Made by a program: the position numbers and the translations under genes | The notes under the pieces: generated by a model | What the model was told of the DNA's origin: nothing | What the model saw: only the letters and a program-made list of their open reading frames with translations | Databases searched by the model: none | NCBI GenBank assembly: GCA_020249265.1 | Contig: JADCGA010000019.1 | Location: 62,001-126,000 of the forward strand | DNA length: 64,000 nt | Origin: Roseomonas sp. | Lineage (GTDB): Bacteria > Pseudomonadota > Alphaproteobacteria > Acetobacterales > Acetobacteraceae | Direction of reading: 5' to 3' | Shown here: positions 10,967-47,943 of the stretch, piece after piece | Numbering within the stretch: position 1 is the stretch's first letter | Layout of the letters: every line of letters begins with the position of its first letter

Positions 10967-11515
10967 TCAGCCCCCGCCGCTTTTTGGCACAGTCCAGGGC
11001 GGCGGGTTGGGTGCGCGCGAAATCGCCGCCATGCAGGCCGATTCGGTCAGGCGCCGCGCACCAAAGGCCCGTGCCGCCGCATGGGTCAGCACCAGCCGCG
11101 CATGTTCCGGGTAGAAAACCAGATCCAGCCGGCAATCTGGCGCCTGATAAAGCCAGATCTCTGCCTCCCCCTCCCGCCGGCGCAAGGCTGGCTCCCCAAG
11201 GGCGGAGATCACCGCATCGGGCTCTTGCCCCTGCAAGACGCTGGCGGCGGCAGGTGGTTGGGTACCCTGGCGGCGCGGGGCGCTGGCGCTGCTGGGCGGG
11301 GGCGGCAATGGCGCAGGGCGTTCCATTTGCGATGCTTCCGGGGCAGTTGGCAGACCAAGCGCAGCCAAGCTTGCCCTGGTGTCACGCAATGCCTGTTCCA
11401 GGCCAAGCGATGCCCCCTCGGCTTCAGATTTCCGGCAGGCAGGGGTGAACATGAGCGCCGCCAAAGCAAGGCTGGCAGCGCCCAGGGGGCCAAGGGGAAG
11501 CGACCGCGGCGACAT
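10967..11515 (-). CDS. Predicted lipoprotein of unknown function
   Basis: About 182 residues from the ATG at 11513-11515. The N-terminus (MSPRSLPLGPLGAASLALAA) ends in a lipobox-like sequence LMFTPAC, so the protein is probably lipid-anchored after processing at that cysteine. The middle is a Pro/Ser/Ala-rich linker; the C-terminal half (DAVISALGEPALRRREGEAE, then IWLYQAPDCRLDLVFYP) resembles small SmpA/OmlA-like folds that have the sequence pattern LGxPxxxR...WxY, but I do not assign one. It precedes the AEC gene on the same strand. Confidence 0.6.
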   Translation of the reverse strand: MSPRSLPLGPLGAASLALAALMFTPACRKSEAEGASLGLEQALRDTRASLAALGLPTAPEASQMERPAPLPPPPSSASAPRRQGTQPPAAASVLQGQEPDAVISALGEPALRRREGEAEIWLYQAPDCRLDLVFYPEHARLVLTHAAARAFGARRLTESACMAAISRAPNPPPWTVPKSGGG

Positions 11516-11571
11516 GCTTTGCCGCGGTGATGGGATTGTCGGCCTTGGCCCCTGGCGCACGCGGCGCCGGA

Positions 11572-12192
11572 TCAGGAATCGCTTGACTCAACCACACGCA
11601 CAGGCGGCGCCACGGCCATCGGGCTGCCGGCCGATGCTTCGGTGATCATTTCCATGCGCCCCGTCAGCTGCCCGCCATCTTCCACGGAAAGGCGACGGGA
11701 CCGCGCCACGCCCAGCACCCGCCCTGTGGCGCGGATGATCAGGCTGCCGGTTGCGGTCAAAGTGCCATCAAAGACGCCGGCGATATCGGCATCTTCCACC
11801 TGCACCTCACCTTTGAAGACGCCGGAATGGCTGATCGCCAATTCCTGGCACTGCAAAAGCTGGCTTTCCATGGTGCCTTCAATGACGATGCGCTCGACCT
11901 CCGTCACGCTGCCTTGGATGCTGATGCCCTTGCCCAATTGCAGGACGCGCTTTTCACCGGCTTCAGCCCGCCCGGTGGGGCGGCCGGCGGTGGGGGCGGA
12001 AGGGCGTGCAGCGGGGGATGGCGCGATGGTGGGCTTCGCGGATGTAGCGGCCGCGCTGGCCACCGGCGGCACCACTGCCGCCCCAGGCCGGAAGGGCGGC
12101 ACCGCCAGATCAGGATCGCGCGCTGTCGGCACACTGGTTGGTTCCGGTGCTGACGGAGTGGTGTCTTCATCCTTACGACGGAAAAGCGACAT
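11572..12192 (-). CDS. Bactofilin (polymer-forming cytoskeletal protein)
   Basis: A 206-residue protein with a disordered, Pro/Ala-rich N-terminus, the central beta-helical bactofilin domain (GKGISIQGSVTEVERIVIEG, then repeats around VFKGEVQVEDADIAGVFDGT and RLSVEDGGQLTGRMEM), and a short tail. Bactofilins self-assemble into filaments without nucleotide and scaffold cell-wall enzymes or stalk/cell-shape factors. AAGGGGG about seven bases upstream supports the start at 12192. The usual neighbouring M23 peptidase gene is absent here; flanking genes are a lipoprotein and an EI24 protein on the same strand. Confidence 0.9.
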   Translation of the reverse strand: MSLFRRKDEDTTPSAPEPTSVPTARDPDLAVPPFRPGAAVVPPVASAAATSAKPTIAPSPAARPSAPTAGRPTGRAEAGEKRVLQLGKGISIQGSVTEVERIVIEGTMESQLLQCQELAISHSGVFKGEVQVEDADIAGVFDGTLTATGSLIIRATGRVLGVARSRRLSVEDGGQLTGRMEMITEASAGSPMAVAPPVRVVESSDS

Positions 12193-12273
12193 ATTTGGCC
12201 CCCTTGCTGATTCGCGTTACTGCTAATTCGGGCTAGCATGCGACTCTGCCGCGCCACAACGGGCGAAAGCGGG

Positions 12274-12963
12274 TTATCCCCCGTTTTCTGATGATGCACT
12301 CGGAAATTTTTCAAAGCCGCGGATCAGCAAATGCGCAGCCGTCGCAATGCCAATGATCGGCACCAATAAATTCACCACCGGCACCATCGCCATCAGGGCC
12401 AAGACAAGGCCAAGCATCCAACCCTGCCAGCGCAGCCGCTGCCAGGCGATGCGTGAATGCGCAAGGTTCATGCGCCTGAGCGCCACTTCCCGCAGCAACC
12501 CCGCCCCCAGCGCATGGGCCGAGATCAGCAACGCCAGCAGCGCGCCAAAAAGCGGGATGAAGAACAACGGCAAAAGCAGGATTTGCAGCGCCAACAGCTT
12601 GACGCTGAACCAAACCCCGTACCCTGCCTGCGCCAGCGCCGAGGCCCCGGCAGGCGGCGGCAGGTAGGGGTAATGGCGCCGTTCCACCGCGCCGGCGATG
12701 CTATCCGTGAATTGTGCGGCAATACCCAAGGCGACGGGCAGAAAAAGCCACCAACTCAGAAACACCCCCGCCGCCGCACCGCCGGCTTGCGTGATCCAGG
12801 AAAGCCATTCCGGCCCGCCCGCAGCCGCCCAGCCTGCCAGCCAGGCTGCCAAACCGATCAAGCCCAGCACCGCCAAAGCCGCGCCCAGCACGCCCAGGAT
12901 CAGCGGGCGGCGAAAGGCAGGGTCGCCGAATTGTCTCAGGGCGAGGAAAAGCGCTTGGGGCAT
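12274..12963 (-). CDS. EI24 domain-containing inner-membrane protein (CysZ-like)
   Basis: About 229 residues with four to five long hydrophobic segments (for example VLGAALAVLGLIGLAAWLAG and LLALQILLLPLFFIPLFGAL). The pattern and the final segment (LVLALMAMVPVVNLLVPIIG) fit the EI24/CysZ family, whose best-known member supports sulfate uptake, although no cysteine-synthesis genes are nearby. I choose the ATG at 12963, with GAGGGTGG at good spacing, over a GTG four codons earlier. Confidence 0.75.
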   Translation of the reverse strand: MPQALFLALRQFGDPAFRRPLILGVLGAALAVLGLIGLAAWLAGWAAAGGPEWLSWITQAGGAAAGVFLSWWLFLPVALGIAAQFTDSIAGAVERRHYPYLPPPAGASALAQAGYGVWFSVKLLALQILLLPLFFIPLFGALLALLISAHALGAGLLREVALRRMNLAHSRIAWQRLRWQGWMLGLVLALMAMVPVVNLLVPIIGIATAAHLLIRGFEKFPSASSENGG

Positions 12964-13021
12964 GGTGGACGCCACCCTCGCCCAAGGCTAATCCCGGCGC
13001 AATCTTTCTTGGAGCCCACCC

Positions 13022-14032
13022 ATGACCCCCCCCAGCCTTGATATTCTTGGCATCGGCAATGCCATTGTGGATGTGCTGGCCCGTGCCGAGGATGCCTTCC
13101 TGGCCGAACATGGCATGGCCAAGGGCGGCATGGCGCTGATCAGCACTGACCAGGCGGAGGCGATTTACGCCGCCATGGGGCCGGGCATTGAAAGCAGCGG
13201 CGGGTCTGCCGCCAATACCTGTGCGGTGGCAGCCGGGCTTGGCGCGAAGGTCGGCTACCTTGGCAAGGTGGCCGATGATGGGCTGGGCCAGGTATTCCGC
13301 CACGACATCACCGCCGCCGGCGTGCATTTCCCAACCCCGCCGCTGGTGGGCGGCGCGCCCACCGCGCGCTGCCTGATCCTGGTGTCGCCCGATGGCCAGC
13401 GCACCATGAACACCTTCCTTGGCGCCTGCGTGACCTTTGGGGAGGCTGACCTGGACCCTACCGCCATTGCCAGCGCGCGGATTGTCTATCTTGAGGGCTA
13501 TTTGTTCGACCCGCCCGCGGCCCAGGCCGCCTTCCGCGCCGCCGCCCGCATGGCGCATCAGGCCGGGCGGCAAGTGGCGATTACGCTATCCGACCCCTTC
13601 TGTGTTGGCCGCCACCGCGCTGCCTTCCGCGCCTTCATCAAGGAAGAAGCCGATATCGTCTTCGCCAATGAAGCCGAGATTTGCGCGCTCTATGAAACCG
13701 ATGATTTCGATGCCGCGGCCAAGGCCGTGCGGGCCGAAGTGGCCATTGCCGCGCTCACCCGCAGCGAAAAGGGCAGCCTGATCATCGCGGGCAGCGAGAC
13801 CCATGCGGTCCGCGCCGAGCCCACCAAGCTGGTGGATAGCACCGGCGCCGGTGATGCCTATGCCGCCGGCTTCATGGCGGCGCTGACCCGCGGCTTGCCC
13901 CTGCCGGAATGCGGCCGCTGGGGCAGCATCGCGGCTGCCGAGGTTATCTCCCATTTCGGCGCCCGCCCCCAGGCCGATCTGGCGGCGCTGATCGGCAGCC
14001 GGTCCGGCGGGGTGGCGGCGGCGCTGGGGTAG
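13022..14032 (+). CDS. PfkB-family carbohydrate/adenosine kinase
   Basis: A 336-residue ribokinase-superfamily enzyme usually annotated as adenosine kinase in alphaproteobacteria. The N-terminal ILGIGNAIVDVLA and GGSAANTCAVAAGLGAK form the sugar-binding lid, and the C-terminal DSTGAGDAYAAGFMA holds the anion-hole GAGD with the catalytic aspartate. NEAEICALYE is the second PfkB-type signature region. It phosphorylates a nucleoside or sugar with ATP in the cytoplasm; specificity cannot be set from sequence. AGCCCACCC precedes the ATG. It is divergent from the EI24 gene and followed by typA. Confidence 0.9.
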   Translation: MTPPSLDILGIGNAIVDVLARAEDAFLAEHGMAKGGMALISTDQAEAIYAAMGPGIESSGGSAANTCAVAAGLGAKVGYLGKVADDGLGQVFRHDITAAGVHFPTPPLVGGAPTARCLILVSPDGQRTMNTFLGACVTFGEADLDPTAIASARIVYLEGYLFDPPAAQAAFRAAARMAHQAGRQVAITLSDPFCVGRHRAAFRAFIKEEADIVFANEAEICALYETDDFDAAAKAVRAEVAIAALTRSEKGSLIIAGSETHAVRAEPTKLVDSTGAGDAYAAGFMAALTRGLPLPECGRWGSIAAAEVISHFGARPQADLAALIGSRSGGVAAALG

Positions 14033-43638: not shown

Positions 43639-44241
43639 TCACAATTGATGATGCGCCGCCGGCCCCATCACCGCTTCACGCATGCGCGCCTGCAACAACG
43701 CGCCTTCGCGCGGCGGCAGCACCAAAGGCTTGCTGGTGGCGTCAATTTTCGCGACCGCGAAGAAGGGGCCATTCCCGGCATGGATCGCCTTATGCAGCGG
43801 CGGCACTTCATCTGGCTTGGTCACGAACATGGTGTTCGCAATGCCAGCACCCTTGGCCATCATCACCAGATCAACGCCATGGCGTGTCGCGGTTTCCTGC
43901 ATGCCGGTTTCACCGTAATGCTCATTGTCTTGCACCACGATGGAAAGATTGGCGGGTTTTTGCACCGCAATCGTCGCCAAAGCGCCAATGCCCATCAGCA
44001 TTTCGCCATCGCCGGTAATCACCAGCACCTTGCGCTTGGGCTGCGCGAGCGCCAGGCCAAGGCCGATCATGGCAGCGCCACCCATGCCGCCCCAAAGCGG
44101 CAGGTTTTCCGCGCAATCGCCAATGGCGGTGATGTCCCAGGCCGGCGCACCAAGCCCGGCGATCACCAGCATCTCACCACGGTCCGCGAGCAACGCGCGG
44201 GTCAATTCTCGGCGATCGAGTTTTCCGGAAGCAGCAAGCAT
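43639..44241 (-). CDS. Thiamine-diphosphate decarboxylase beta subunit (sulfopyruvate decarboxylase ComE-like)
   Basis: About 200 residues from the ATG at 44239-44241 (AAGGA upstream). It contains the ThDP-binding motif beginning GDGEMLMGIGALATIA and ending NEHYGETG, with preceding GGMGGAAMIGLGLALAQP. Two-subunit enzymes of this size are sulfopyruvate or phosphonopyruvate decarboxylases. Together with the alpha subunit encoded 4 bases upstream it would decarboxylate a 2-oxo acid to an aldehyde. No phosphonate genes are nearby. Confidence 0.82.
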   Translation of the reverse strand: MLAASGKLDRRELTRALLADRGEMLVIAGLGAPAWDITAIGDCAENLPLWGGMGGAAMIGLGLALAQPKRKVLVITGDGEMLMGIGALATIAVQKPANLSIVVQDNEHYGETGMQETATRHGVDLVMMAKGAGIANTMFVTKPDEVPPLHKAIHAGNGPFFAVAKIDATSKPLVLPPREGALLQARMREAVMGPAAHHQL

Positions 44242-44245
44242 TTTC

Positions 44246-44797
44246 TCAGTCCTTCCCGAAAGTCTTGGCGCCAAGCACGCGCTGGCCAATCAGGGTTGCG
44301 GTGGGGCGAAAGGTATTGAAGGCCAGGCGAATGGTGGCATTCACCGTGGGCGCGATATCTTCCGGCGTATCGGCGCGGCGCACCAGCGTGCCCATGGCTT
44401 CCAGCACGGTTTGCGTTGCATTGCCCATGGGCACTTGCGCTGGATTGAATTCGCCAAAATCACCGCGCATCGTCACCAGCATCGGCATCGGGCAGCGATG
44501 CATGGTGGAAAGCGAGAGCATATTGATGCAATTGCCAACGCCGGAAGATTGCATCAGCAAAACACCCTTCGCCCCACCAAGCCAGGCACCTTGCAAAAGC
44601 GCGATGCCTTCTTCTTCGGTGGTCAGCGTCACCACTGTCATTTCATTATCGGCAAGGCAGCGCCGGATCAGCCGGGAATGCCCGGCATCCGGGACCAAAG
44701 CCACTTGCGTGATGTTGTGAGTCTTGAGCAGGGAATAAATCTGATCCGGCCAATCGGCCGCAGCGTCAGGCGCCTTGTCATTTGCGTGCTGGTCCAT
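44246..44797 (-). CDS. Thiamine-diphosphate decarboxylase alpha subunit (sulfopyruvate decarboxylase ComD-like)
   Basis: About 183 residues starting at the ATG at 44795-44797. It holds the pyrimidine-binding half of a split ThDP enzyme: the catalytic glutamate region TTEEEGIALLQGAWLGG and the motif LLMQSSGVGNCINMLS are characteristic of ComD/phosphonopyruvate-decarboxylase alpha chains. It is the first gene of the minus-strand operon ending with MmgE/PrpD, and is divergent from the arfB locus. Confidence 0.82.
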   Translation of the reverse strand: MDQHANDKAPDAAADWPDQIYSLLKTHNITQVALVPDAGHSRLIRRCLADNEMTVVTLTTEEEGIALLQGAWLGGAKGVLLMQSSGVGNCINMLSLSTMHRCPMPMLVTMRGDFGEFNPAQVPMGNATQTVLEAMGTLVRRADTPEDIAPTVNATIRLAFNTFRPTATLIGQRVLGAKTFGKD

Positions 44798-44883
44798 GGT
44801 TTCCCGTTCCTTGATCGGCCCAACATCCTGCGCCCGGGCCTTCATGGCAAGACAGGGCGGGCCAAGATGTTCTATGAAACCGC

Positions 44884-44997
44884 ATGATCCGCATCACCCC
44901 CGCCATCGCCATTGCCGAACAGGAGCTGAAGGAAGCCTTTCTGCGTGCCTCGGGCCCTGGTGGGCAAAATGTGAATAAGTCCGAGCCGATTTCATGA
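44884..44997 (+). pseudogene. Truncated 5' end of the resident arfB (peptidyl-tRNA hydrolase) gene
   Basis: Thirty-seven codons that begin MIRITPAIAIAEQ and contain the catalytic release-factor motif SGPGGQNVNK at residues 23-32, then run into SEPIS and a TGA. This is a clear ArfB/YaeJ N-terminus cut after residue 32. The break point is about 44980-44985. The stop overlaps the start of the complete arfB-like gene (ATGA at 44994-44997), so translation of this stub could drive translation of the second copy. Confidence 0.8.
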
Positions 44998-45416
44998 TCC
45001 GCGTTACGGGGTCAATCAGCATTGACGAGGCGGAACTCCACGAGGATTTTCTGCGGTCAAGCGGCGCGGGCGGGCAGAACATCCAGAAGGTGGAGACGGC
45101 CGTCCAACTGCGATTCGATGCCGCAAACAGCCCGAACCTGCCTGACGGGGTGAAGGCCCGCCTTCTTCGCTTGGCAGGTCACCGGGCAACGCGGGAAGGC
45201 GTCATCATCATCACCGCTCAGCAGCACCGGACACAGCATCGGAACCGGGAAGATGCGCTGGCCCGCCTGCTCGAATTGATCAAAGAGGCAGCGCGCCCAC
45301 CGCCCCCGCCTCGTAAGAAGACGCGACCGACTCTTGCCTCAAAGGTCCGTCGGCTTCAGGGCAAGGCGCTACGCTCGACCCTCAAGCGCGGGCGCGGACG
45401 ACCAGATATAGACTGA
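44994..45416 (+). CDS. arfB: Alternative ribosome-rescue factor ArfB-like peptidyl-tRNA hydrolase
   Basis: A complete 140-residue ArfB. It has the GGQ domain (RSSGAGGQNIQKVETAVQLR), the following ITAQQHRTQHRNREDALARL, and a basic C-terminal tail (RKKTRPTLASKVRRLQGKAL) that enters the empty mRNA channel of stalled ribosomes. It hydrolyses peptidyl-tRNA on non-stop ribosomes. It starts inside the stop of the truncated resident arfB. Protein similarity to the stub is high over the first 32 residues but not identical, so it is a diverged copy, probably brought in with the following ars-like genes. Confidence 0.88.
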   Translation: MIRVTGSISIDEAELHEDFLRSSGAGGQNIQKVETAVQLRFDAANSPNLPDGVKARLLRLAGHRATREGVIIITAQQHRTQHRNREDALARLLELIKEAARPPPPPRKKTRPTLASKVRRLQGKALRSTLKRGRGRPDID

Positions 45417-45512
45417 GTGATAGAGGCAGTAGTGACCAGCATCCCCAACGGTCGCTGCGGTAGCCTCACGTCGTCGGCCTGGCGTGCCATGCCCTACGGG
45501 GTGAACCAGACC

Positions 45513-45558
45513 TTGACAGCACGTATTATATCGTTATATCCAGAATTATGGATACAAC
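45513..45558 (+). promoter_or_regulatory. Promoter and operator overlapping the arsR start codon
   Basis: TTGACA (45513-45518) and TATATC (45535-45540) with a 16-base spacer make a good sigma-70-like promoter whose start point would fall at about 45547-45548, at the A of the arsR ATG. The inverted repeat GTTATATCC (45533-45541) / GGATACAAC (45550-45558), matching at eight of nine pairs, covers the -10 and the start codon. No Shine-Dalgarno site precedes the ATG. This suggests a leaderless, autoregulated arsR message. Confidence 0.55.
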
Positions 45559-45919
45559 CCATGCAGCCGAAGCTTTCGGCGCCCTCTCGCAGGAAAACCG
45601 CCTGGCGGTGCTGCGCCTCCTCATTGAGGCCGGTGATGGGGGTATGCCAGCCGGAGACATTGCGCGTCACTTCGGCGCGCCACAGAACACGATGTCCTCT
45701 AACCTCGCCATCCTTGCCCGGGCGGGGCTTGTCACCTCGCGGCGGGACGGCCGGTCGGTAATCTACGCCGCCGACTACGCTGGGCTACGGAGGCTGATCG
45801 CCTTCATGCTCCAGGACTGTTGCAAAGGGCTCCCAGAAGTCTGCGCGCCCTTGCTCGACGCCGAACTGGCGCCCGCTGCCGCACTCTGCCGCCCAACAAT
45901 TCTATCATCGGAGATTTGA
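45548..45919 (+). CDS. ArsR/SmtB family transcriptional regulator
   Basis: A 123-residue winged-helix repressor. DTTHAAEAFGALSQENRLAV and HFGAPQNTMSSNLAILARAG (recognition helix) followed by the wing RRDGRSVIYAAD are typical. Cysteines occur in the C-terminal part, with a vicinal pair in MLQDCCKGLPEVC and another in AALCRP, a plausible trivalent arsenic or antimony site. It lies two bases upstream of the flavoprotein gene and probably represses its own operon from the operator over the start codon. The exact inducer is inferred. Confidence 0.88.
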   Translation: MDTTHAAEAFGALSQENRLAVLRLLIEAGDGGMPAGDIARHFGAPQNTMSSNLAILARAGLVTSRRDGRSVIYAADYAGLRRLIAFMLQDCCKGLPEVCAPLLDAELAPAAALCRPTILSSEI

Positions 45920-45921
45920 CA

Positions 45922-47325
45922 ATGCCCGACGCCATCCGCGTTGATCGCACTTTGCCAGTCGTCATCATTGGGGGCGGCCCGGTCGGCCTCGCCGCTGCCG
46001 CTCACCTCATTGAACGCGGTCTGCGAGCCTGCGTCTTTGAAGCCGGGTCCGAACCAGGCACCGCTGTCCGCGAATGGGGGCATGTGCGCATGTTTTCGCC
46101 ATGGCAGTTCAACCTGGATGCTGCGGCCCGCAGGCTCCTTGAAGCCACAGGTTGGAAAACCCCGGACAGCGGCGCCTTTCCCACAGGCGCCGATCTCGTA
46201 GCCTTATACTTGGCGCCGTTGGCCGCTACACTGGCGAAAGCAGGTGCTGACTTCCGCTACAACGCGAAGGTGGTTGGCGTCTCCCGTCGTCACCACGACC
46301 GCTTGCGTGAAGGACAGCGCGCCGCTGGTCGCGGGCGGGATACCGCTCCCTTCGTGCTGCACGTAGCCAGCGCTGACGGCAGCATCCAGGTGGTCGAGGC
46401 GAGCGCGGTGATCGACTGCACTGGCACATGGACCAGTCGGAACCCAGCCGGTGCGCATGGCCTTCCGGCGCCCGGTGAGGCCGCGAATGCCGACCGCATC
46501 GCCTATGGCATCCCCGACATGCTCGGCATCAGTAGAAGCACCTATGCGGGCGCGACGACGCTAGTGCTGGGCGGTGGCGATTCCGCAATGAACGCCGTGC
46601 TTGATCTCGTCGCCTTGGCCCGGCAAGCGCCGAATACGCGCATCATTTGGGCATTACGTCGCCCGCTGGCCGAGGTGAACTTCGGCGGCGGCGATGCAGA
46701 CGGTCTGGCGGCTCGCGGTGCGCTTGGCGCACGGGCAAACGCGCTGATCGAGTCCGGGCAGGTCCAGGCGCTAGCGCCCTTCCTTGTCCATGGGATCAAG
46801 CGCGAAGGTGACCGGTTGCTGGTCCATGGTGACCGGGGCGGCACTGCCGATACAGTGCTCGCAGACCGCATCATCGTAGCCACCGGCTTCCGGCCTGACC
46901 TCTCGTGGCTTGGGGAGATGCGTCTTACGCTCGATCCCGCCGTGCAGGCCACACCCTCACTGGCTCCGTTGATTGATCCCAACATCCATTCCTGCGGCAC
47001 GGTCCGCCCGCATGGCGAGGCCGAGCTTCGGCACCCGGAGGAGCCGGGCTTCTATGTGGCAGGCATGAAGGCATACGGCCGGGCGCCGACCTTTTTGTTG
47101 GCAACAGGCCACGAGCAGGTGCGCAGCATCGCCGCCCACCTTGCCGGTGACGTTGCTGCCGCCCGGCGCGTCGAACTCGTTCTGCCCGAAACCGGCGTCT
47201 GCTCGACGCAGCGCCCCGCGTCTGTATCGGCCGCGACGGGCGAATGCTGCGGCCCCGACCGTGTCTCCGCGCCGGTCCGCACGCCTGTCGTCACAGAGGC
47301 GTGTTGTGGTCCTATTCCCCGCTAA
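45922..47325 (+). CDS. FAD/NAD(P)-binding flavoprotein with Cys-rich C-terminus, ars-associated
   Basis: About 467 residues from the ATG at 45922 (GGAG eight bases upstream). The FAD motif VVIIGGGPVGLAAAAHLIER, the NAD(P) motif LVLGGGDSAMNAVLDL and IIVATGFRPDLSW place it among group B flavin monooxygenases/thioredoxin-reductase-like proteins. The last 45 residues carry five cysteines (427, 442-443, 461-462) in TGVCST, ECCGPD and ACCGPI, a tail suited to soft-metal binding. Linked to an ArsR regulator, it may oxidise or reduce arsenic compounds, as suggested for ArsO-type proteins. No arsB, acr3 or arsC is present. Function remains inferred. Confidence 0.7.
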   Translation: MPDAIRVDRTLPVVIIGGGPVGLAAAAHLIERGLRACVFEAGSEPGTAVREWGHVRMFSPWQFNLDAAARRLLEATGWKTPDSGAFPTGADLVALYLAPLAATLAKAGADFRYNAKVVGVSRRHHDRLREGQRAAGRGRDTAPFVLHVASADGSIQVVEASAVIDCTGTWTSRNPAGAHGLPAPGEAANADRIAYGIPDMLGISRSTYAGATTLVLGGGDSAMNAVLDLVALARQAPNTRIIWALRRPLAEVNFGGGDADGLAARGALGARANALIESGQVQALAPFLVHGIKREGDRLLVHGDRGGTADTVLADRIIVATGFRPDLSWLGEMRLTLDPAVQATPSLAPLIDPNIHSCGTVRPHGEAELRHPEEPGFYVAGMKAYGRAPTFLLATGHEQVRSIAAHLAGDVAAARRVELVLPETGVCSTQRPASVSAATGECCGPDRVSAPVRTPVVTEACCGPIPR

Positions 47326-47485
47326 GCTTCGCGACAGTCTCATGATATCAGCGATGAAATGTTACCGTCGACGAAGTGTGTGCCGCAGCGTGGGTGGCAG
47401 TTAAACATCTGTGCAGACCATCGGACTGCCTTCAAATGTATGTTCTTTACCTCATCCGTCATCGGAAACTCTGCACATTGGCACA

Positions 47486-47538
47486 GATCAAAGCGCGGCG
47501 CCGTCAAACGCCTGCGTCGCGGCACAACTGAAGATTGA
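47486..47538 (+). pseudogene. Probable 3' tail of the resident arfB gene
   Basis: In one frame the sequence reads RSKRGAVKRLRRGTTED and stops at 47536-47538. This is the composition and spacing of an ArfB C-terminal tail (basic, ending in acidic residues). It lies 19 bases before the terminator shared with the convergent HU gene, where an intact arfB would end. The upstream part of the frame (47326-47485) shows no ArfB similarity, so the middle of the resident gene seems to have been lost. Confidence 0.5.
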
Positions 47539-47556: not shown

Positions 47557-47591
47557 AAAAAAAGGCGGTGTCCCATCGGAACACCGCCTTT
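47557..47591 (-). terminator. Rho-independent terminator of the HU gene
   Basis: AAAGGCGGTGT (47561-47571) and ACACCGCCTTT (47581-47591) form a perfect 11-bp stem with a nine-base loop. On the minus strand it is followed by a run of seven T, making a classical terminator 16 bases after the HU stop. The plus-strand side also ends with TTT, so it may act weakly for the arfB side. Confidence 0.85.
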
Positions 47592-47607: not shown

Positions 47608-47916
47608 TCAGGCCTTCGCCTTGCGCTTGCCCTTCTTCACGCCGGCCAGCGCAGCGCCCTTCAGCGCAGGGCTCGCCTTGAAGCGGACAGTGGCGCCAGC
47701 CTTGATTTGCACCTTTTCACCGGTCTTGGGGTTCAAGCCAGTGCGCTTCGGGGTTTCGCGCACAGCGAAAGCACCGAAATCAGGAATAGTGAAACGGCCG
47801 GAGCTGACAATTTCAGTCTTGATCGCGTCAATGATATCAGCGGCAAGCTTGCCCGCAGCAACCGCAGACATATCGCCGGATTTGGCGATCACATCAGTGA
47901 GGAACTTCTTCGACAT
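47608..47916 (-). CDS. HU/IHF family DNA-binding protein
   Basis: About 102 residues from the ATG at 47914-47916 (GGGAGAATCG upstream). It has the HU fold: MSKKFLTDVIAKSGDMSAVA, the GRFTIPDFGAFAVRETPKRT arm region and GEKVQIKAGATVRFKASPAL, followed by a short lysine-rich tail (GVKKGKRKAKA). It bends and compacts DNA in the nucleoid. The RNPKTG-type arm tip is seen as LNPKTGEK. The Lys tail extends the usual 90-residue length. Confidence 0.93.
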   Translation of the reverse strand: MSKKFLTDVIAKSGDMSAVAAGKLAADIIDAIKTEIVSSGRFTIPDFGAFAVRETPKRTGLNPKTGEKVQIKAGATVRFKASPALKGAALAGVKKGKRKAKA

Positions 47917-47943
47917 GGTTCGATTCTCCCGTAAGAATGCCTT

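What the first reader, a model, noticed from the sequence alone, without database searches (positions are those of the whole stretch)
44884..47538. Resident arfB split by a cassette that brings its own arfB and an ars-like pair
The sequence shows an ArfB N-terminus with its GGQ motif that stops after 37 codons, then a complete ArfB-like gene starting in that stop (ATGA), an ArsR regulator, a Cys-tailed flavoprotein, and finally an ArfB-like C-terminal tail (frame ending RLRRGTTED at 47538) exactly where the native gene should end, before the HU terminator. The inference is that foreign DNA entered arfB, removed the middle of the gene and restored rescue activity with its own copy, translated through the stub. 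Mobile elements that replace the 3' part of a conserved gene are known; arfB as such a target, without an integrase, is to my knowledge unusual.
Basis: partly seen in the sequence, partly recalled or inferred. Interest (0 to 1): 0.78.

Follow-up and report, generated by a model that had tools for sequence, protein, structure and literature searches.

The report
Foreign arfB cassette inside resident arfB
A bacterial ribosome-rescue gene (arfB) has been cut near its start by foreign DNA that carries a complete replacement arfB plus two arsenic-operon genes; relatives show the empty site, the same insert scattered across species, and in another genus an integrase-bearing element in the same few codons, which suggests that arfB is an overlooked landing site for mobile DNA.

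Summary
The window holds a 37-codon native ArfB stub ending in ATGA, a complete foreign arfB starting in that overlap, arsR, a Cys-tailed flavoprotein, and a 17-codon native ArfB tail before HU. Nine congeners (10 loci) have intact arfB between the same neighbours; 8 of 35 genus genomes carry the cassette. The window tail alone is too short to prove homology; six other carriers keep 35-53 residues. The cassette ArfB falls outside the genus's native ArfBs. On an rpoB-region tree carriers are scattered (at least 5 gains or losses), and cassette and flank similarities disagree, so it moves horizontally. The cargo is the 5' half of an arsR-flavoprotein-arsC-acr3 operon. In another genus of the family (G520) an about 6-kb element sits in arfB within a few codons of the same point, with a large serine recombinase, a 12-bp core shared by both ends, and its own complete foreign arfB, again starting where the stub ends. 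Best reading: an integrase-less relic of such an arfB-targeting element, since spread mainly by homologous recombination. Translation through the stub, the relic's recombinase and arsenic function are inferred. New variant of a known kind.

The parts
44884..44997 (+). Native arfB N-terminal stub, 37 codons plus TGA; GGQ intact here; native identity ends at about codon 31-34
   Evidence: 94% to intact congeneric ArfB over 34 aa; 110 nt from stub ATG to copy ATG in the 7 of 8 carriers that keep a stub
44994..44997 (+). ATGA: start codon of the replacement arfB overlaps the stub stop
   Evidence: same in 7 of 7 carriers that keep the stub
44994..45416 (+). Complete foreign replacement arfB (140 aa, GAGGQNIQK type)
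   Evidence: NF006718 184 bits; clade of 8 cassette copies outside the genus natives
45417..45547 (+). Intergenic region with a TTGACA hexamer about 30 nt upstream of arsR (likely promoter of the ars pair)
   Evidence: TTGACA in 7 of 7 carriers compared, G026 not compared; function inferred; the consensus scan did not score it as a promoter
45548..45919 (+). arsR-type metalloregulator with CC motif
   Evidence: NF033788 72 bits, cut-off 55
45922..47325 (+). FAD/NAD(P)-type flavoprotein with Cys-rich C-terminus (ArsO-like at low score, function not known)
   Evidence: Pfam Pyr_redox_3; NF040505 ArsO 43 bits, far below its 425 cut-off; in Belnapia mucosa L069 and Roseococcus pinisoli L073 followed by arsC-like and acr3-like genes
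47326..47484 (+). Cassette right-end remnant, non-coding in appearance, differing between cassette lineages
47485..47538 (+). Native arfB C-terminal tail (17 codons plus stop)
   Evidence: supported by longer tails in 6 other carriers
47561..47591 (-). Terminator-like hairpin at the end of the HU gene, downstream boundary of the locus
   Evidence: 14-pair stem with T run
47611..47919 (-). HU gene, conserved right neighbour
   Evidence: PF00216; same neighbour in the empty sites
43639..44845 (-). Two TPP-enzyme subunit genes, conserved left neighbours
   Evidence: same neighbours in the empty sites

Best explanation
The cassette is the immobile relic of an integrative element that uses the GGQ-coding part of arfB as its attachment site and brings a complete arfB from another genus. 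Insertion cut the resident gene after about codon 31-34. The element's arfB lies at its left end with its start codon in the stop of the stub, so that ribosomes which start on the host's own arfB signals read the stub and restart on the replacement. The cargo was an ars operon; a later deletion removed arsC, the efflux gene, any integrase, the right attachment site and the middle of the native gene, leaving arfB-arsR-flavoprotein and an orphan native tail. The damaged allele has since spread between species of the genus, and been lost again, most simply by homologous recombination in the conserved flanks. Shown: anatomy, empty sites, foreign ArfB, scattered carriers, mosaicism, and an integrase-bearing element within a few codons of the same site in another genus. 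Inferred: that the window cassette was mobilised by a recombinase of that kind, the translational coupling, the deletion of the rest of the ars operon, and the arsenic function.
For: Empty sites with the same neighbours in 9 congeners, 10 loci. Cassette in 8 of 35 genus genomes; stub-to-copy distance 110 nt in the 7 that keep the stub. Cassette ArfB clade (98/88) apart from the genus natives (100/99). arsR-flavoprotein-arsC-acr3 order in L069 and L073 suggests a truncated ars operon as cargo. Carriers scattered on the rpoB-region tree: 7 changes, at least 5 forced by supported branches, 433 of 500 shuffles as low. Cassette and flank similarity disagree: G033/G034 flanks 96-99%, inside a 73-99% patchwork; G033/G005 flanks 80-96%, inside 94-99.6% (250-column windows). 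Independent element in G520 (L197): native stub, complete foreign arfB, MTase, serine recombinase with Resolvase, Recombinase and Zn_ribbon domains, native tail from QNVNK; GCAGAACGTCAA at both ends, its 11-base part CAGAACGTCAA in 4 of 4 congeners with arfB. Its stub frame also stays open through 26 codons of element DNA and stops within the first three codons of its arfB. Cassette copy dN/dS about 0.09 (7 carriers, G026 left out).
Against: No integrase, right att site or direct repeat was found in any of the 8 carriers, so the link to an integrase rests on analogy with a single other element, whose left arm is different (72 nt against 17 or fewer before the arfB ATG). The two left junctions are close but not proven identical: partial similarity (Glu34 is shared) leaves a range of about 10 nt. 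The cassette lineages have different right ends. Split arfB is rare: in a sample of 397 family genomes only G520 outside the window genus was found (with the gaps told under Tried and rejected), and none among 127 ArfB-bearing genomes outside the family in a class sample of 385. The 7 named carrier records are MAGs, where strain mixing can fake mosaicism. Stub dN/dS (0.12) equals native (0.11), which fits recent arrival but also selection on the stub. Flanks are not simply host-like everywhere: G024 has a G008-like stub but a G031/G019-like tail and right flank.
Confidence: 0.66

Rival explanations
1. No integrase was ever involved: a linear foreign fragment carrying arfB and the ars genes entered once by homology-assisted illegitimate recombination at arfB and then spread by homologous recombination in the flanks.
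For: No integrase or att repeats seen in 8 of 8 carriers; the right junction has lost native codons, as illegitimate joining often does; mosaic cassettes show strong homologous exchange.
Against: The G520 element enters arfB within a few codons of the same point with a recombinase and the same layout; a double crossover at arfB homology would give hybrid genes, not a stub plus a whole copy; no donor with arfB next to arsR-flavoprotein was found among the 80 named loci and the 29 class loci L142-L170, apart from the 7 carriers themselves (flanks at most 5 kb and 1.5 kb).
Confidence: 0.22
2. One insertion in the ancestor of the small-genome clade, inherited vertically and lost many times.
For: One cassette clade; constant 110-nt stub; several stubs resemble the natives of their own host lineage, as vertical descent would also give.
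Against: At least 5 forced changes on the rpoB-region tree; cassette and flank similarity disagree; the G005 stub is 100% identical over 93 nt to intact G019/G031 arfB; loss must recreate an intact native gene, which excision cannot do because the middle is gone.
Confidence: 0.08
3. Assembly or binning artefact.
For: The 7 named carrier records are MAGs with similar accession prefixes (titles); G013 has two arfB loci, a sign of mixed strains.
Against: Same anatomy in 8 genomes, the window's on a 220-kb contig; frames open; neighbours constant.
Confidence: 0.02

Closest known systems
Genomic islands and prophages in dusA (PMC4482086; abstract start, passages)
   Same: Integrase-driven insertion at a conserved site inside a housekeeping gene, with element-supplied sequence replacing the disrupted part, in many bacteria
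   Different: Those islands give a new 5' end to the native dusA; here a complete foreign arfB is placed behind the native stub and the native 3' part is orphaned
Mobile element in mutS (PMC5296598; abstract and passages)
   Same: Insertion in a conserved motif of a conserved gene, scattered carriers, element phylogeny unlike host phylogeny, some elements possibly degraded
   Different: That element supplies a new promoter and start for the rest of the native gene; here the whole gene is replaced and host start signals appear to be kept
CP4-57 prophage at ssrA, the tmRNA gene (PMC10107115; abstract and outline only)
   Same: A mobile element next to a ribosome-rescue gene whose excision changes the rescue pathway
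   Different: RNA gene, not arfB; no complete second copy mentioned in what I saw
Large serine recombinase elements in conserved genes (PMC10083194; passages)
   Same: Distantly related recombinases converge on single sites in conserved coding sequences
   Different: arfB was not among the targets in the passages seen; its supplement was not read

Membership tests
Gene-targeting integrative element (dusA/mutS type) | Insertion inside a conserved gene, with empty sites in relatives | tested here: met
   10 empty loci in 9 genomes, same neighbours
Gene-targeting integrative element (dusA/mutS type) | Element supplies a replacement for the disrupted gene | tested here: met
   Complete foreign arfB under purifying selection; activity not tested
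Gene-targeting integrative element (dusA/mutS type) | Integrase gene in the element | tested here: not met
   None among the genes between stub and tail in the window; met in the G520 element
Gene-targeting integrative element (dusA/mutS type) | att core repeated at both ends | tested here: not met
   Native sequence at the right starts only at codon 85 or later in the 8 carriers, so the right site is gone; met in G520, GCAGAACGTCAA
Gene-targeting integrative element (dusA/mutS type) | Excision as a circle | not testable with these tools
   needs PCR on cultures
ArfB (NF006718) | Whole-protein score over the curated cut-off, GGQ motif | tested here: met
   Copy 184 bits against 100, GAGGQN
ars operon | ArsR regulator plus efflux or arsenate reductase genes | tested here: not met
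   arsR present; no arsC match at the locus by tblastn; under 300 nt lie between flavoprotein and HU, no room for acr3; both present in L069 and L073
ArsO flavin monooxygenase (NF040505) | Score over the curated cut-off | tested here: not met
   42.8 bits against 425

The most novel reading that the evidence does not exclude
The GGQ codons of arfB are a recurrent attachment site for a family of elements that bring a whole replacement arfB: its start codon is fused to the stop of the host stub, so the element borrows the host's expression signals, and its own copy of the site is of the diverged NIQK/NVQK type, which would spare the element from inserting into itself. In the window's genus the relic may still move precisely, by a recombinase acting in trans.
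Probability: 0.25. Interest if true: 0.65.

Novelty: new variant of a known kind. Interest (0 to 1): 0.52.

Why it matters
If true, it adds arfB to the conserved genes used as landing sites, next to ssrA (PMC10107115) and prfC (recalled, no call), so that translation-rescue and release genes look like favoured docks. It also shows a different way to make the disruption harmless: a complete foreign gene joined to the host's stub, rather than a patched end. Because a relic and an integrase-bearing element are both in hand, the mechanism can be tested directly.

Tried and rejected
Assembly artefact: judged unlikely, 8 genomes share the anatomy. Native duplication: rejected by the ArfB tree. Second double-arfB locus G743: a near-identical segmental duplication, not an element. 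IMG/VR: no relative of the G520 recombinase confirmed; the ArfB query gave 28 loci of distant GGQ proteins (26-54% identity), not followed. Phages and plasmids: ArfB matches in 4 and 66 records, all below 60% identity; recombinase relatives at 26-34% in the rows shown, 8 of 18 and 12 of 20 records. The 20 further matches of the G520 recombinase in the family have no arfB fragment within their fetched flanks of about 1.5 kb. Solved structures: none matched the recombinase, only weak partial matches to the flavoprotein. Integrase remnant in the right-end region: six-frame translations showed no long conserved frame by eye. arsC remnant at the locus: none at E 1e-3. RNA structure at the coupling site: not unusual, z 0.41. 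The flank tree, and its flank identities for G007, G024 and G017, are wrong by an alignment slip; replace them. Constant stub length is weak evidence of selection, because the arfB-arsR distance is also constant in 7 of 8.

Literature searches for arfB or yaeJ as an integration site: 15 of 5,105 shown, none of the 15 holds arfB; 2 papers, not opened; 3 papers, two opened in part; 0 papers; 10 of 148 shown, none of the 10 holds arfB. None of what I saw names arfB as a target. Only an open-access library is held and no supplements were read. One search returned nothing; some searches gave listings of which only PMC10083194 was opened.
Full report
What is there. At 44884 an ArfB reading frame starts, passes the GGQ motif and stops after 37 codons; the stop shares its bases with the start of a second, complete ArfB (44994-45416), followed by arsR (45548-45919), a flavoprotein (45922-47325) and a 17-codon ArfB-like tail ending at 47538, about 75 nt from HU. 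By itself the tail is not significant (59% of 17 residues, E=0.067).

Empty site. In the window's genus 33 of 35 genomes have an ArfB match (G009 and G027, both under 80% complete, have none). Eight carry the cassette. I fetched 20 regions from 19 genomes (7 other carriers, 12 non-carriers). In 9 small-genome non-carriers (10 loci, G013 having two) an intact arfB lies between the same TPP-enzyme genes and HU (the left side of one G013 locus is cut by a contig end); in three others (G004, G028, G016) HU was not seen in the fetched stretch. Among the carriers 7 of 8 keep the stub, each time 110 nt upstream of the copy's ATG and ending in ATGA. In G017 the stub is gone and the copy stands directly on the native upstream sequence, as recombination between the short identical starts of stub and copy would leave it. 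GGQ is damaged in 2 of 7 stubs (G024, G026) and in none of the 13 intact natives translated. Native tails reach 53 residues in G026; I recognise no native codons between about 35 and 84 in any of the eight.

Foreign gene. In a 60-row ArfB tree the eight cassette copies form one clade (98/88) apart from the genus natives (100/99), among other genera of the family, many of them with the AGGQN(I/V)QK type (several long branches; rows chosen by similarity to the cassette copy). The seven stubs are 90-100% identical to their nearest native over 93 nt and 56-65% to their own cassette copy. The window genome also has tmRNA, so ArfB is probably a backup; [quoted passage not shown]

Cargo. arsR and flavoprotein are 72% and 70-73% identical to a pair with the same spacing in Belnapia mucosa L069 and Roseococcus pinisoli L073. 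There an arsC-like gene and a membrane protein that I recognise as Acr3-like by eye (no family search was run on either) follow. In the scans of named relatives (the 80 kept of 329) and unnamed ones (29 loci from 32 of 385 genomes with a match), arfB within the fetched flanks occurred only in carriers of this cassette (flanks at most 5 kb, 1.5 kb for the unnamed ones). So arfB plus half an ars operon looks like a combination made by the insertion history. The flavoprotein fails the ArsO cut-off by far; its function is open.

Movement. On a tree of the rpoB region (19 genomes, IQ-TREE, 7 of 16 inner branches weak) the carriers need 7 changes, at least 5 of them forced by well supported branches, and 433 of 500 label shuffles are as low, so presence shows no sign of following descent. 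Flanks and cassette disagree: G033 and G034 share flanks at 96-99% while the inside is a patchwork of 73-99%; G033 and G005 have flanks of 80-96% and an inside of 94-99.6%. Synonymous divergence is lower in the cassette (arfB copy dS 0.28, flavoprotein 0.27) than in stubs (0.40) or natives (0.54), though the genome sets differ. Stub and near flanks resemble the host's own relatives in G000, G007 and G033; G024 and G034 are mixed and G026 has no close relative in the set. In G005 the stub is identical to intact G019/G031 arfB while its left flank is only 91% alike, which points to exchange close to the stub. Stub dN/dS is 0.12 against 0.11 in natives and 0.09 in the copy (pairwise sums, not independent; G026 left out of copy, arsR and flavoprotein), as expected if most stub history passed before insertion. 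Homologous recombination explains the spread of one damaged allele; repeated site-specific entry is not excluded.

The parallel. A family search with the cassette ArfB (397 genomes, 356 with a match) showed one more genome with split arfB, G520 of genus g292; in that genus 1 of 6 genomes has it, 4 have one ArfB match and one has none. Its contig reads eutB-eutC, a stub ending in GGQNV, a complete arfB starting at L197:7209, a DNA methylase, a serine recombinase (11359-13119, minus strand; Resolvase, Recombinase and Zn-ribbon domains) and a native tail from QNVNK. The tail groups with the genus natives (100/98) and the stub is 87.5% identical to one of them over 32 aa; the inner copy does not group with them. 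Both ends share GCAGAACGTCAA; the 11-base part CAGAACGTCAA is present in the 4 of 4 congeners with arfB. The stub frame stays open for 26 codons of element DNA, and its stop lies within the first three codons of the inner arfB. So the layout stub, overlapping complete foreign arfB, cargo, orphan tail occurs twice with different DNA at nearly the same codon. That is the main reason to read the window cassette as an element relic.

Search depth. Of 106 family genomes with two or more matches that I picked by eye, 80 were re-scanned: the only same-contig pair, G743, is a segmental duplication. In 385 class genomes 129 have ArfB at E<=1e-6, 127 of them outside the family; only G000 and G061 (two full copies on different contigs) have more than one match (at most 10 candidates scored per genome). 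Short stubs or tails below these thresholds would be missed.

Self-immunity idea. The inner arfB has a diverged site in both cases (CAGAACATCCAG here, CAAAACATCCAG in G520, against CAGAAYGTSAAY in the targets). This type is common in the family sample, so two cases out of two are weak evidence.

Verdict. The new parts are the empty sites, the horizontal scatter, the truncated ars operon, and an integrase-bearing element in the same few codons. Elements in or at conserved genes are known (dusA, mutS, ssrA); arfB as the target, and replacement by a whole gene joined to the stub, did not turn up in the searches.

Noticed in passing
L028 (G017); L063 has the same length and layout: One carrier has lost the stub cleanly, so that the foreign arfB stands on the native upstream sequence: a finished gene replacement.
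   Followed up: partly
L197:7897-9537 and 11359-13119: The G520 element carries a DNA methylase and a 586-aa serine recombinase whose relatives seen in the phage and plasmid collections and in the family are at 26-39% identity.
   Followed up: partly
L032 and L033 (G013): One genome bin holds two intact arfB loci with similar neighbours, a possible sign of mixed strains in the bin.
   Followed up: no
L294 (G743): arfB duplicated about 8 kb apart, the second copy frameshifted.
   Followed up: partly
L227-L254: 28 loci of IMG/VR contigs encode short GGQ proteins distantly related to ArfB (26-54% identity over parts); function unknown.
   Followed up: no
window 43639-44845, minus strand: Two subunit genes resembling sulfopyruvate decarboxylase alpha and beta, both below the curated cut-offs, near frames that look like Bug-type (TctC) receptors by eye.
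   Followed up: no
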